DNA of 64,000 bases, taken from Herbiconiux oxytropis (GTDB taxonomy: Bacteria; Actinomycetota; Actinomycetes; Actinomycetales; Microbacteriaceae). The DNA lies in NCBI RefSeq assembly GCF_024979315.1, contig NZ_JANLCK010000002.1:124001-188000 (forward strand), read 5' to 3'. This document shows, one piece after another, positions 24,861-31,503 of the stretch (position 1 is the first letter of the stretch; every line of letters starts with the position of its first letter). A model generated the notes under the pieces. That model saw nothing but the letters and a program-made list of their open reading frames with translations, was not told the origin of the DNA and did not search any database. A program made the translations under genes and the position numbers.

Positions 24861-25835
24861 TTGAGCACTCCGCACCTCTTGCCCCCGACCGTCACGAAGT
24901 TCGCAGTCGCGGCGGTCGCGGTGGCCACCCTCGCGGGCCTTGCCGCGTGCAGCACCGGCAGCGATGCCGGCACGCCCGCCGCCACCGAGGCCGCGGCCTC
25001 GTTCGACCAGGCCCTCTTCGACGAGCTGCCCGCCGCCAACCAGGAGTCCAAGGCGGTCTCGTTCGGCGCCCTCTGGGAGAACCCGCCCATGGTGAACGTC
25101 TCGGTCGATGACTCCACCGTGCCCATCGGCCTCGCCCCCGAGCTCGCCGCGGCCCTCGGTGACGTGCTCGGCGTCACCCCCGAGTGGCAGAACCTGCAGT
25201 GGCCGGCGCAGCTTCCCGGCGTGCAGAGCGGCAACGTCGACGCGCTCCTCGGGCAGGTCAGCGTCACGGCCGAGCGCGAGGTCGGCGTCGTCGACCTGAT
25301 CCCCTTCTACCGCGGCACGTACTCGATCCTCGTTCCGGCCGGGAACCCGGAGGACCTCGACTCCCTCGCGAGCGGCTGCGGTCTCACCCTCGGCGGCGGG
25401 GTCGGCTCCACCGTCTCGGCCATGATCACCGCTGCGAGCGACGCCTGTGTGGCCGAAGGCGAACCCGCCATCTCGGTGGCGGAGTACCCGAACGCGCAGA
25501 ACGCCGTCAGCGCCGTGCAGGCCGGCACGATCGACGGCTGGGTCGACGGCACCGCCAACCAGCTCGCCGCAGTCGAGGCCCTGCCCGACGCGTTCGCCGC
25601 CGTCGAGATCCCGGTCGCCGAGTCCGAGGTCGCCGACCCCGGACTCCTGGGCATCGCCGTAGCGAAGTCGAACCCCGAGCTGTCGACGGCCCTCGCCGAC
25701 GCACTGAAGGTGATCATCGAGAACGGCACCTACGAGGAGATCCTCGCGGGCTACGGCCTCGAGTCTTCCGCCCTCACGGCCGACGAGGTCGTCATCAACC
25801 CGCTGAGCGGCACTCCGGTCGGCGAGACCGAGTAG
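24861..25835 (+). CDS. Polar amino acid-type ABC importer, substrate-binding lipoprotein
   Basis: Lipoprotein of 324 residues with a basic/hydrophobic signal and lipobox LAGLAAC (Cys30), followed by a class F (family 3) periplasmic-binding fold. The domain halves contain PIGLAPELAAALGDVLG and VDALLGQVSVTAERE. Such proteins deliver amino acids or small charged solutes to the permease. TTG at 24861 is chosen because AAGGA sits six bases upstream; a longer reading from ATG at 24789 adds a segment that spoils the signal peptide. It is the first gene of the importer/oxidation cluster. A strong stem-loop follows the stop. Confidence 0.88.
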   Translation: MSTPHLLPPTVTKFAVAAVAVATLAGLAACSTGSDAGTPAATEAAASFDQALFDELPAANQESKAVSFGALWENPPMVNVSVDDSTVPIGLAPELAAALGDVLGVTPEWQNLQWPAQLPGVQSGNVDALLGQVSVTAEREVGVVDLIPFYRGTYSILVPAGNPEDLDSLASGCGLTLGGGVGSTVSAMITAASDACVAEGEPAISVAEYPNAQNAVSAVQAGTIDGWVDGTANQLAAVEALPDAFAAVEIPVAESEVADPGLLGIAVAKSNPELSTALADALKVIIENGTYEEILAGYGLESSALTADEVVINPLSGTPVGETE

Positions 25836-25839
25836 CACC

Positions 25840-25872
25840 GACGGGCGGGGTGGCTCCGGCCTCCCGCCCGTC
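25840..25872 (+). terminator. Stem-loop between binding-protein and permease genes
   Basis: GACGGGCGGG (25840-25849) pairs perfectly with CCCGCCCGTC (25863-25872) across a 13-base loop. It begins five bases after the binding-protein stop and lacks a T tract. Placed inside the operon, it would protect the upstream mRNA or attenuate the permease genes. Confidence 0.65.
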
Positions 25873-25904
25873 CCTTCCGGGTCGATCGACGAGGAGACGA
25901 CGAG

Positions 25905-26738
25905 TTGTCTGAAGTGGGCAGGAATCTGATGGTGGTGCCCGTGCGCCACTACGGCCGCATGATCTTCGCGGTCATCGTGGTGCTGGCGGTGATCGGCACC
26001 GTCTACAGCATCGCGACCAATCCGAACTTCGAGTGGTCGGTGGTGGCCGAGTTCCTCTTCAGCCCCAGCATCCTGCGGGGGCTCGGGTCGACGCTCGTCA
26101 TCACGATCGTCTCGATGGTGATCGCGGTCGTGCTGGCGGTCGTGATCGCCGTCATGCGGATCTCGCCGAGCCGTATCATCAGCTCGGTCGCGGCGTTCTA
26201 CGTCTTCGTCTTCCGCGGCATCCCGCTGATCGTGCTGCTCATCCTGCTCGGCAACCTCGGGCTCTTCCTCAAGTCGATCACCATCGGCATCCCGGGCACC
26301 CAGGTCGTGCTCATCGACGTGCCGATCTCCGAGGTGATCACGCCGTTCGTCGCGTCGGTCGCCGGGCTCTCGCTCGCGGGGGCGGCCTACATGGCGGAGA
26401 TCGTGCGCTCGGGACTGCTCGCCATCGGGCGCGGCCAGCGCGAGGCGGCGAAGGCCCTGGGACTCACGAGCTCCCGCACACTGCGCTTCATCGTGCTGCC
26501 CCAGGCGCTCCGCGTCATCCTGCCGCCGATGGGCAACGAGTTCATCGGCATGCTCAAGGCGTCGGCCATCGTCTCCGTCATCGCCGGCGGAGACCTGCTG
26601 ACGGTGGCGCAGGGCATCGCCGGCACCAACTACCGCACGATCGAGCTCCTGATCGTGGCCACCATCTGGTACCTGCTCGTGATCATCGTGTTCTCGATCG
26701 GGCAGTACTTCCTCGAGCGACGGACGGCGGAGAAATGA
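25905..26738 (+). CDS. ABC transporter permease, polar amino acid type
   Basis: Membrane protein of 277 residues of the HisM/GlnP type, with about five helices and the EAA loop as [37 protein letters not shown] split over residues about 175-210. The start is TTG at 25905, preceded by a GGAG motif. The stop overlaps the ATPase start (ATGA). It forms the channel for the solute captured by the upstream lipoprotein. Confidence 0.93.
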
Positions 26739-29886: not shown

Positions 29887-29887
29887 G

Positions 29888-30166
29888 ATGCACGTGCGCT
29901 GCACCGTCGAGTCGATGAACTACTCCGCCTGCGGACTCGTCGCCGGCGACCACTTCGACGTGATCGACGGACAGCTGTCGCTGCCCACCGGCCGGCCGTT
30001 CTGCTACTTCGCCATCGCGAACGCGATCCCGCTGCTCAGCGGCCGGCTCGATCGGCCCGAGGGCGACGCGTGGCTCGACTCCCGCCCCCTCATCGCCTGC
30101 CCCGACCCGCCCGAGGCGCTGTACCTGCGACTCGAGCGCATCCACGATCCGGAGATCCCAGAATGA
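29888..30166 (+). CDS. TIGR04076-like small protein, copy 2
   Basis: Protein of 92 residues, paralogous to the preceding gene. It has a CGLVAGDHFDVIDG turn, FCYFAIANAIPLLSGRLDRPEGD and the CPDPPEALYLRLERI end. Four cysteines are present, more than in copy 1, so the two are not simply redundant; a heteromer is possible. The stop overlaps the LLM oxidoreductase start (ATGA). Role unknown; an accessory or small enzyme subunit in the oxidation cluster is the inference. Confidence 0.8.
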   Translation: MHVRCTVESMNYSACGLVAGDHFDVIDGQLSLPTGRPFCYFAIANAIPLLSGRLDRPEGDAWLDSRPLIACPDPPEALYLRLERIHDPEIPE

Positions 30167-31179
30167 GCCTCAGCCGAGACGGCCTGACCTTCAGCGCCCG
30201 CATCTCCTCGCACGAGGGCGTGCGCCCGCTCGCGGCCAAGGCGACGTTCGTCGAGGAAGCCGGTTTCGACCAGGTGTGGATCGGGAACGACCTCTTCGGC
30301 GAACCCGGTCTCGTCTCGCTCGCGGCGATCGCGATGAGCACGGAGCGGATCCGGTTCGGCTCAGCGGTGATCGATCCCGTGTCGCTCCACCCCGCCCAGA
30401 TCGCCATGCTGGCGTCGGGGCTGCAGGATCTCTCGGGCGACCGCTTCCTGCTCGGGCTCGGTGCGGGCTCCGACGTCTTCTACTCCTGGGCGGGGCTGAC
30501 CCCGCCAGGCCCTGTGGTGCGCACGCGCGAGGCCGTCATCGCCATCCGGGCCCTCATGAACGGCGAGAGCCCGCTGGGGCTCCCCGGCGTGGCCGACGGC
30601 TGGACCGAGCAGGCGGTCCTCCGCTTCGCGCGGCCCGCCCCGATCTACGTGGGCGCGATGGGCCCGCGGATGCTCGAGATGACGGGGCGGCTCGGCGACG
30701 GCGCGCTGCCGCTGTGCCTGCCGCCGCGGCACGTCTACGGCGTGATCGAGCAGATCACGGCGGGCGCCGGGAAGGCCGGCCGGAGCATCGACGACATCGA
30801 CGTGGCGGCCTGCATCTGGTGCTCGATCTCCGAGGACCGCGACGAGGCCAGATGGCTCCTCGCCAAGCACATCGCCCTCTACAGCGGATCGCTGTCGGTG
30901 GAGGCGCTCGCGAGCAACGGCCTCGACCCTGAGGAGTTCGCCCACACCCAGGCGCTCATGCTCGAGGGGCGCGAGGACGACGCGATCCGGTCGGTGAGCG
31001 CCTCGATGCTCGAGCTCGGGATCGTCGGCGGCCCCACCGAGGTCATCGACCAGTGCGCGGCGCTGATCGACGCGGGCGTCGACCACATCAGCTTCGGACC
31101 CCCGATGGGGCCGGACTCCATGACCTCCGTCAAGATCCTGGGCGAAGCCGTCTTCCCGGCCCTTCGCGCCTCGATCTGA
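30163..31179 (+). CDS. Luciferase-like (LLM) flavin/F420 oxidoreductase
   Basis: Protein of 338 residues with the bacterial luciferase-like TIM barrel. It resembles the methylene-tetrahydromethanopterin reductase type: FVEEAGFDQVWIGNDLFGEPG, a core GDRFLLGLGAGSD, and PIYVGAMGPRMLEMTGRLGDGALPL. Members use FMNH2 or F420. It may be the oxidoreductase partner of the monooxygenase or a separate step. The ATG at 30163 overlaps the second TIGR04076 gene. The ABM gene starts 27 bases downstream. Confidence 0.9.
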   Translation: MSLSRDGLTFSARISSHEGVRPLAAKATFVEEAGFDQVWIGNDLFGEPGLVSLAAIAMSTERIRFGSAVIDPVSLHPAQIAMLASGLQDLSGDRFLLGLGAGSDVFYSWAGLTPPGPVVRTREAVIAIRALMNGESPLGLPGVADGWTEQAVLRFARPAPIYVGAMGPRMLEMTGRLGDGALPLCLPPRHVYGVIEQITAGAGKAGRSIDDIDVAACIWCSISEDRDEARWLLAKHIALYSGSLSVEALASNGLDPEEFAHTQALMLEGREDDAIRSVSASMLELGIVGGPTEVIDQCAALIDAGVDHISFGPPMGPDSMTSVKILGEAVFPALRASI

Positions 31180-31206
31180 CCTCGTCCACCCACGAAAGGA
31201 CCATCC

Positions 31207-31503
31207 ATGATCGTGATCACCGGCGGCGTCGCCGTCTCCCCCGATGAGGTGGCCGCCATCAGCGCGGCCGCCGCCGACTTCGCGGCGGAGTGCCGCAAGG
31301 AGGCCGGCAACATCGACTACCGCCTCAGCTGGGACATCTCCGAGCCGAACCGCATCGTGCTCAACGAGGCCTGGGACGACGTCCCCTCCTACGACCTCCA
31401 CACCACCCAGCCCCACGTAGCAGCCTGGACCACCCTCATAGCGGCCGCCTCCCTAGAGGCCCCCGCCTTCACCAAGTACACCGCCACCCCCTACACCCCG
31501 TAG
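31207..31503 (+). CDS. ABM (antibiotic biosynthesis monooxygenase) domain protein
   Basis: Small ferredoxin-like alpha/beta protein of 98 residues: VITGGVAVSPDEVAAISAAA, FAAECRKEAGNIDYRLSWDI, and the W-containing strand EPNRIVLNEAWDDVPSYDLHTTQPHVAAW. Relatives of the YgiN type oxidise quinols or aromatic alcohols without a cofactor. A clear GAAAGGA site precedes the ATG. It is the last gene of the importer/oxidation cluster, directly before a strong terminator. Confidence 0.88.
   Translation: MIVITGGVAVSPDEVAAISAAAADFAAECRKEAGNIDYRLSWDISEPNRIVLNEAWDDVPSYDLHTTQPHVAAWTTLIAAASLEAPAFTKYTATPYTP

What the first reader, a model, noticed from the sequence alone, without database searches (positions are those of the whole stretch)
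24861..31503. Uncharacterised import-and-oxidise cluster with paired TIGR04076 proteins
An amino-acid-type importer, an SDR-fold protein, an acyl-CoA dehydrogenase-fold monooxygenase, two TIGR04076-like proteins, an LLM oxidoreductase and an ABM protein form tight, mostly overlapping units that end at one terminator. I know of no described pathway with this set. The two small proteins sit exactly between two flavin enzymes and are translationally coupled to both, which suggests they are subunits, cofactors or catalysts for an unstable oxidised product. The importer and the nearby tryptophan operon suggest a nitrogen-containing or aromatic substrate.
Basis: partly seen in the sequence, partly recalled or inferred. 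Interest (0 to 1): 0.7.

Follow-up and report, generated by a model that had tools for sequence, protein, structure and literature searches.

The report
Kynurenine-linked oxidation cluster with pseudo-kynureninase
Soil actinobacteria share a gene cluster that probably imports and oxidises a tryptophan-like amino acid; it carries a matched pair of small unknown proteins and a dead kynureninase fragment, neither with a known job, and its exact substrate is still unknown.

Summary
Observation confirmed: nine tightly packed genes at the stated coordinates. The cluster is not strain-specific: a scan with the flavin monooxygenase alone found eight loci (Herbiconiux, Microbacterium, Thermocatellispora, Ilumatobacter and others); all eight carry both TIGR04076 genes, the importer and the SDR. 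In 10 of 12 a kynureninase lies within about 13 kb and the genome holds a salicylyl/2-aminobenzoyl-CoA monooxygenase-like gene; the same two clusters lack both. New: the unnamed gene just upstream (24350-24709) is, by predicted fold, a kynureninase fragment without the PLP lysine, found in 12 of 12. The monooxygenase keeps its flavin-hydroperoxide residues (15 of 15 sequences). The LLM is Mer-like and may use F420 rather than flavin. In 21 of 22 genomes of the order that carry TIGR04076 relatives, an LLM follows directly; elsewhere TIGR04076 mostly lacks LLM. Best reading: import and oxidation of a tryptophan/kynurenine-type amino acid feeding kynurenine and anthranilate. Substrate and step order are inferred.

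The parts
20280..21134 (+). tryptophan 2,3-dioxygenase (TDO)
   Evidence: TIGR03036 396.1 bits, cut-off 390.7
21128..22189 (+). amidohydrolase-like gene (named by eye) between TDO and kynureninase; possible kynurenine formamidase replacement (inference); start not fixed
   Evidence: open frame; no NCBIfam match at 1e-10; L035 and L044 have an alpha/beta hydrolase in the cluster instead
22189..23508 (+). kynureninase (KynU), PLP lysine present
   Evidence: TIGR01814 265.9 bits, cut-off 246.4; alignment
23526..24353 (+). PaaX-type regulator (start uncertain)
   Evidence: TIGR02277 138.1 bits, below its 264.55 cut-off; relatives in 8 of 9 other loci mapped
24350..24709 (+). pseudo-kynureninase fragment, overlaps PaaX by 4 bp
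   Evidence: AF2 pLDDT 93.2; Foldseek top three hits human kynureninase, best E 4.8e-7, TM 0.82; profile hit in 12 of 12 clusters, 9 of them its own members
24861..25835 (+). family 3 amino-acid-type solute-binding lipoprotein
   Evidence: PF00497; Arg/Asp conservation
25905..26738 (+). ABC importer permease
   Evidence: PF00528, TIGR01726
26735..27526 (+). ABC importer ATPase
   Evidence: PF00005; best NCBIfam models EhuA and GlnQ, both below cut-off
27523..28290 (+). SDR-fold oxidoreductase
   Evidence: PF13561; in the 11 other clusters
28331..29581 (+). ACAD-fold two-component flavin monooxygenase
   Evidence: nearest PDB sequences Rv3094c, HsaA-type, HPAH C2, XiaF; W90, G123, S148, W194, S204, H370 in 15 of 15
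29578..29886 (+). TIGR04076-like protein a (cysteine pattern altered)
   Evidence: 29.0 bits, below cut-off 33
29888..30166 (+). TIGR04076-like protein b (four cysteines)
   Evidence: 33.6 bits, cut-off 33; AF2 pLDDT 88.4
30163..31179 (+). LLM-class oxidoreductase, Mer-like
   Evidence: PF00296; F420_mer 172.6 bits, cut-off 348.7; tree
31207..31503 (+). ABM-fold small protein
   Evidence: PF03992; in 11 of 12 clusters, not L045
31512..31550 (+). GC-rich hairpin after ABM
   Evidence: fold; no T-run, not called

Best explanation
A PaaX-regulated catabolic cluster for an imported alpha-amino acid of the tryptophan/kynurenine kind. The family 3 binding protein and its ABC partners bring it in. 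The ACAD-fold monooxygenase, fed with reduced flavin by a flavin reductase that 7 of the 9 other loci mapped encode, puts an oxygen on the indole or aminophenyl ring through a C4a-hydroperoxyflavin. The SDR and the Mer-like LLM, more likely than not F420H2-dependent, turn the unstable oxidised product over by hydride transfer; the TIGR04076 a/b pair works as an asymmetric small partner of the LLM; ABM handles a by-product or intermediate. The carbon then runs through kynurenine, kynureninase (alanine + anthranilate) and an aminobenzoyl-CoA. The pseudo-kynureninase fragment, in 6 clusters encoded just behind PaaX, most likely binds a kynurenine-like ligand without turning it over, as a sensor or partner. 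Shown: gene content, conservation, fold and residues. Inferred: substrate, step order, F420 use, and the roles of TIGR04076, ABM and the pseudo-kynureninase.
For: Conservation: 8 of 8 loci found through ACAD carry both TIGR04076 genes, importer and SDR. Kynureninase within about 13 kb in 10 of 12 clusters and a salicylyl/2-aminobenzoyl-CoA monooxygenase-like gene in the same 10 genomes or records. Alanine dehydrogenase near the cluster in Rhodococcus and, by eye, in L067, as expected if kynureninase releases alanine. Amino-acid-binding Arg 10 of 10, Asp 9 of 10. Hydroperoxyflavin-site residues mapped from Rv3094c (PMC9904262 passages; alignment) in 15 of 15. F420: Fgd near four clusters (L044, L047, L067, Rhodococcus plasmid); cofD over cut-off in 10 of 11 cluster genomes, the 11th cut by a contig end. 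TIGR04076-LLM coupling. Pseudo-kynureninase in 12 of 12.
Against: Two of 12 clusters (Thermocatellispora L045, Ilumatobacter MAG L050) have no kynureninase near and no monooxygenase match at E 1e-100; L050 sits beside genes that I read by eye as an extradiol ring-cleavage set, so the module does not need the kynurenine route. NCBIfam calls the Rhodococcus CoA monooxygenase a salicylyl-CoA 5-hydroxylase (1203.3 bits, cut-off 1078); aminobenzoyl-CoA is my reading. No flavin reductase found in L043 or seen among the window ORFs. TDO, a formamidase and KynU alone would take tryptophan to anthranilate, so the extra oxidations are unexplained if the substrate is plain tryptophan. The F420 contrast with single-TIGR04076 genomes (16 of 27) is weak: Fisher p 0.12 for 10 of 11, 0.016 only if the truncated gene counts. 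Of 28 loci with a single TIGR04076 next to an LLM, only 4 showed kynurenine-pathway genes in the stretch read. No biochemical data on any member.
Confidence: 0.5

Rival explanations
1. The ACAD enzyme and SDR work like IacA and IacE: they oxidise an indole amino acid at C2/C3 to a dioxindolyl-type amino acid, a route to ring opening that bypasses TDO; LLM, TIGR04076 and ABM complete the opening.
For: IacA is annotated as an ACAD-family protein and with the SDR IacE oxidises many 3-substituted indoles, IacG being annotated as flavin reductase (PMC7225977 passages); the same trio of families is present here. Explains the module without TDO near it in L045 and L050.
Against: No Iac sequence was at hand for comparison; the 29-kb annotated Rhodococcus region lists no ring-hydroxylating dioxygenase; TDO is co-located in 7 of 9 other loci mapped and in the window.
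Confidence: 0.2
2. The module acts downstream of kynureninase, hydroxylating anthranilate or a derivative and reworking the product, in parallel with the CoA route.
For: ACAD relatives HsaA and HPAH hydroxylate phenols (recalled; family matches); extradiol-type genes beside the module in L050, read by eye; kynureninase and the CoA monooxygenase-like gene co-occur.
Against: Module and amino-acid importer occur without a nearby kynureninase in L045 and L050; SBP, permease and ATPase are with the module in 9 of 9 other loci mapped.
Confidence: 0.15
3. A loose catabolic island: import, oxidation and tryptophan genes are neighbours without one pathway.
For: TDO, kynureninase, SDR and Fgd vary in position or strand.
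Against: The gene set, and mostly its order, is kept down to about 50% identity of the ACAD protein; kynureninase and the CoA monooxygenase-like gene are present or absent together; pseudo-kynureninase in 12 of 12.
Confidence: 0.1

Closest known systems
Kynurenine-anthranilate pathway with a 2-aminobenzoyl-CoA monooxygenase/reductase (recalled)
   Same: TDO, kynureninase, a CoA ligase and a CoA monooxygenase-like gene co-located in the Rhodococcus plasmid; TDO and kynureninase in most clusters
   Different: Adds importer, ACAD monooxygenase, LLM, TIGR04076 pair, ABM and pseudo-kynureninase; NCBIfam names the CoA monooxygenase salicylyl-CoA 5-hydroxylase
Iac indole-3-acetate degradation (IacA/IacE/IacG)
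   Same: ACAD-family oxygenase, SDR and flavin reductase (PMC7225977 passages)
   Different: amino-acid importer, LLM, TIGR04076; no ring-hydroxylating dioxygenase in the annotated Rhodococcus region; sequence orthology not tested
Rv3093c-Rv3094c of Mycobacterium tuberculosis
   Same: ACAD-fold monooxygenase beside a second oxidoreductase; Rv3094c is the nearest PDB sequence (PMC9904262 passages)
   Different: the LLM here scores 82.9 bits for the Rv3093c subfamily, cut-off 213.65
Single TIGR04076-LLM loci of actinobacteria
   Same: TIGR04076 directly upstream of an LLM
   Different: one TIGR04076 gene and a separate LLM clade; peptide-type ABC, amidohydrolase or DUF885 genes nearby in several that I read

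Membership tests
TIGR04076 (protein b) | NCBIfam curated score, 33 bits | tested here: met
   33.6
TIGR04076 (protein a) | NCBIfam curated score, 33 bits | tested here: not met
   29.0; a relative by pairwise search, not a formal member
TIGR04076 | three cysteines kept in 28 of 28 single LLM-linked and 15 of 15 other non-LLM copies (the alphaproteobacterial ones lack one) | tested here: met
   b-type 12 of 12 at all three plus a fourth; a-type 5, 9 and 5 of 12, with a cysteine one column off in 10 of 12
Group D (ACAD-fold) two-component monooxygenase | hydroperoxyflavin-site residues including the His | tested here: met
   W90, G123, S148, W194, S204, H370 in 15 of 15 (map); activity not testable here
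HsaA or HPAH C2 | equivalog score | tested here: not met
   97.6 of 450 and 76.9 of 650
F420-dependent Mer | equivalog score | tested here: not met
   172.6 of 348.7
F420-using LLM | F420 synthesis in the host | tested here: met
   cofD over cut-off in 10 of 11 cluster genomes, 11th truncated
F420-using LLM | F420 binding | not testable with these tools
   needs protein; single-unit LLMs live in 11 of 27 genomes without cofD
Kynureninase (24350-24709) | fold | tested here: met
   Foldseek E 4.8e-7, TM 0.82, 112 columns; next unrelated hit SulA 7e-4
Kynureninase (24350-24709) | PLP lysine and full length | tested here: not met
   fragment ends before the lysine; H in its place in the Rhodococcus form
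Kynurenine pathway enzymes in window | TDO and KynU equivalog scores | tested here: met
   396.1/390.7 and 265.9/246.4
PaaX | equivalog score | tested here: not met
   138.1 of 264.55
Iac pathway | sequence orthology to IacA/IacE | not tested
   no Iac sequence obtained
Iac pathway | ring-hydroxylating dioxygenase IacC (recalled) | tested here: not met
   none annotated in 29 kb of the Rhodococcus locus; other loci read by eye only

The most novel reading that the evidence does not exclude
A new multi-protein oxidation machine for an unstable tryptophan-derived amino acid: an F420-linked LLM with an obligate asymmetric TIGR04076 pair, fed by an ACAD-type oxygenase, and steered by a kynureninase pseudoenzyme that senses or holds the kynurenine-like intermediate together with PaaX.
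Probability: 0.3. Interest if true: 0.78.

Novelty: new variant of a known kind. Interest (0 to 1): 0.58.

Why it matters
I found no tested function for TIGR04076 in print: one paper in the held library names it, in a gene table with the guess 'redox reactions or iron cluster metabolism'. A recurrent TIGR04076-LLM unit gives a testable partner, and the tandem form with unequal cysteines suggests a hetero-pair. A kynureninase fragment kept in 12 of 12 clusters without its PLP lysine, also in a metagenome-assembled genome with no kynureninase over the cut-off, would be a new use of that fold. The set also points to an undescribed branch of aromatic amino-acid catabolism in soil actinobacteria.

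Tried and rejected
Indole degradation by IifC as a homologue: rejected after passages that place indole monooxygenases of that kind with styrene monooxygenases. Skatole cluster of Rhodococcus (SkaA): group E enzyme, a different set. Providencia ACAD hits as indole genes: the one plasmid neighbourhood read lists none. First claim that f108 loci L116 and L118 carry kynureninase: rejected, their best NCBIfam match is SufS. First idea that every TIGR04076-linked LLM is an F420 reductase: rejected, 11 of 30 TIGR04076+LLM genomes lack cofD over the cut-off. The F420 contrast first looked significant (p 0.016) but is not when the truncated gene is left out (p 0.12). The KynU link of P0010 by profile-profile alone was inconclusive (probability 2.9%, E 0.016); structure and the longer forms decided it. 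The TIGR04076 fold search gave no PDB match at or below 0.001. I looked for an IacA sequence among plasmid hits and found none in the four neighbourhoods read. A second Rhodococcus plasmid (strain NJ-530) shows the same ACAD and TIGR04076 matches in the listings and was not read or counted. Literature: no paper holds all of kynureninase, luciferase-like monooxygenase, ABC transporter and tryptophan; one search gave none; listings (20 of 51; 12 of 27; 10 of 32; 1 of 1) showed none on this set by title and abstract start. The naive chance figure for TIGR04076-LLM adjacency ignores relatedness and is not used. Many neighbouring genes were named by eye from translations and are so marked.
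Full report
The observation. Profile searches name them as a family 3 amino-acid-type binding protein, permease, ATPase, SDR, ACAD-fold enzyme, two TIGR04076-like proteins, LLM and ABM. TIGR04076 b just passes the curated cut-off (33.6 of 33), a does not (29.0). The end of the unit is a strong hairpin without a T-run. Upstream on the same strand lie TDO, an amidohydrolase-like gene, kynureninase, a PaaX-type regulator (below the PaaX cut-off) and a 119-aa gene that overlaps PaaX by four bases.

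Conservation. A scan of the genome collection (one genome for each of 84,980 species) with two short peptide patterns taken from the ACAD protein and its Rhodococcus orthologue confirmed 8 loci out of 55 pattern matches; such a scan is not exhaustive. All 8 carry both TIGR04076 genes, SBP, permease, ATPase and SDR. The LLM follows the pair directly in 6 and lies some kb upstream in 2 (L048, L050); ABM is in 7; PaaX hits in 7; TDO and kynureninase in 6; flavin reductase in 6. The Rhodococcus qingshengii plasmid pN9T4-1 has the same set with a flavin reductase, a gene annotated salicylyl-CoA 5-hydroxylase/oxidoreductase (which I read as possibly 2-aminobenzoyl-CoA monooxygenase, by recall of that enzyme's architecture), an AMP-binding ligase, TDO, kynureninase, Fgd and alanine dehydrogenase. 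A second Rhodococcus plasmid (NJ-530) appears in the listings and was not counted. With the window this makes 12 clusters. Window and L043 are near copies (95%), and G107 and G135 share a genus, so about ten are independent.

Link to kynurenine. Kynureninase lies within about 13 kb of the module in 10 of 12. A relative of the salicylyl/2-aminobenzoyl-CoA monooxygenase is in the genome or record of the same 10 (threshold E 1e-100; in the window's genome it lies on another contig). The two exceptions are the same: Thermocatellispora (L045; a canonical kynureninase elsewhere, 403.8 bits) and an Ilumatobacter MAG (L050; only a 32.9-bit match). In L050 the module lies beside genes that I read by eye as an extradiol dioxygenase, hydrolases and an acetaldehyde dehydrogenase. 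So the module is separable, and the kynurenine route is its usual, not its only, continuation. The binding protein keeps an Arg in 10 of 10 and an Asp in 9 of 10; that these contact the carboxylate and amino group of an amino acid is recalled from glutamine-binding protein, the alignment to amino-acid-binding proteins is.

The pseudo-kynureninase. The 119-aa gene at 24350-24709 has no Pfam or NCBIfam match. Its model, made from nine cluster sequences (pLDDT 93.2), matches human kynureninase best: E 4.8e-7, TM 0.82, rmsd 2.0 over 112 columns; the three best hits are kynureninases, the fourth is SulA at 7e-4, other PLP enzymes follow from 2e-3. The domain was found by tblastn in 8 of 8 scanned loci. 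A profile of the nine, searched against the window and all loci prepared for the TIGR04076 survey, recovers those nine and adds L035, L067 and L068, so 12 of 12 clusters; the only other hit is the genuine kynureninase of L122 at 15.6 bits. Longer forms show the ancestry: the Rhodococcus form (277 aa) matches my kynureninase profile at 53 bits and TIGR01814 at 46.7, the Thermocatellispora form TIGR01814 at 23.4, all far below the kynureninase cut-off; the 318-aa form of L048 had no NCBIfam match. The PLP lysine is outside the short forms and aligned with H in the Rhodococcus form. Against this, profile-profile comparison alone was inconclusive. The gene, alone or behind a serine-hydrolase domain (PF06821 in L044, in L047 and L049 by eye), follows PaaX on the same strand in the window, L043, L044, L046, L047 and L049 (in L046 a separate hydrolase stands between). 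It is kept in L050, whose genome shows no kynureninase over the cut-off, so it is not simply a decaying copy of a local enzyme.

The TIGR04076-LLM unit. In a search of 297 genomes of the order, 22 carry a relative of protein a; I surveyed regions of all 22 with profiles: in 21 an LLM gene starts directly downstream on the same strand, in the 22nd (G023) an LLM lies upstream with a gene between. The window genome has 42 LLM matches in 4.13 Mb, about one gene in a hundred. In 394 genomes of the class 13 had a match: the f102, f100 and f114 ones also have the adjacent LLM, the four f108 ones do not, and an aldo-keto reductase stands nearby in three of these (L116, L118, L119). In 296 genomes of the phylum 28 had a family match; I fetched 20 regions from 19 of them, 3 gave no match with my own profile, and 2 of the other 17 have an LLM. 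Of the plasmid loci found with protein a (17 records) I read seven: two Rhodococcus ones with LLM and five alphaproteobacterial ones, all five with an aldo-keto reductase next to TIGR04076. So TIGR04076 is not tied to LLM everywhere, but where I read aerobic clusters its neighbour is an LLM or an AKR. In a tree of 78 LLMs those next to TIGR04076 fall in two groups: one with the 10 tandem-cluster LLMs plus 6 others, 5 of them second or displaced LLMs of the same clusters (100/99), and one with the 28 single-unit LLMs plus 2 others (100/100), joined weakly (88/69); 20 of the window genome's other LLMs lie outside (which also warns of long branches). Kynurenine-pathway genes stand near single units in 4 of 28 loci: kynureninase in L070 (255.1 bits), L077 (243.5, just below the 246.4 cut-off) and L122 (372.8, with a TDO-family gene), and a TDO-like gene in L117. 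The pair is asymmetric: b-type has the three family cysteines and a fourth of its own in 12 of 12; a-type keeps the three in 5, 9 and 5 of 12, though 10 of 12 have a cysteine one column from the last. The b model (pLDDT 88.4) has no PDB relative at or below E 0.001.

Mechanism. The ACAD enzyme is nearest to Rv3094c among solved sequences, which its authors call likely a flavin-dependent monooxygenase, with FMN in the crystal and a histidine proposed to stabilise the hydroperoxyflavin (PMC9904262, passages only). The mapped residues W90, G123, S148, W194, S204 and H370 are invariant in 15 of 15 cluster ACADs. The LLM is Mer-like; cofD is over its cut-off in 10 of 11 genomes with the tandem cluster and cut by a contig end in the last, against 16 of 27 for single units; the difference is not significant on the strict count (p 0.12). 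Fgd lies near four of the clusters. I therefore read the chain as flavin oxygenation, then SDR and probably F420 hydride chemistry with the TIGR04076 pair, then kynureninase. The closest chemistry that I saw in print is IacA with IacE (PMC7225977, passages only).

Limits. The substrate is not known. Plain tryptophan needs only TDO, a formamidase and kynureninase, so the module should act on a derivative, give a second route, or work downstream. No Iac sequences were compared. Several neighbours were named by eye. Literature searches covered only the held open-access library, and no paper was read in full.

Noticed in passing
window 21128-22189: An amidohydrolase-like gene stands between TDO and kynureninase where L035, L044 and L049 have an alpha/beta hydrolase with an HGGYW or HGGFW motif (seen in translations); it may be an unrelated kynurenine formamidase.
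   Followed up: partly
L050 1-16000: Ilumatobacter MAG: the module sits beside extradiol dioxygenase-, hydrolase- and acetaldehyde-dehydrogenase-like genes instead of TDO/kynureninase (by eye).
   Followed up: partly
L066 7990-18661: A third TIGR04076 gene in the window's genome heads an LLM next to amidohydrolase, hydantoinase-like and peptide-type ABC genes (by eye).
   Followed up: partly
L044, L046, L049, L067, L068: A second ACAD type, about 41% identical to the window's, sits in L044, L046 and L049 beside the first and is the only ACAD in the stretches read of L067 and L068; L046, L067 and L068 also carry a second LLM of the same clade.
   Followed up: partly
L117 and L122: Shortened or altered TDO-like proteins beside single TIGR04076-LLM units; in L122 the stretch around the usual active-site histidine reads differently.
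   Followed up: no
L036 9986-13760: Rhodococcus sp. YL-1 plasmid: TIGR04076 followed by two LLM genes and an FAD oxidoreductase behind an APC permease.
   Followed up: no
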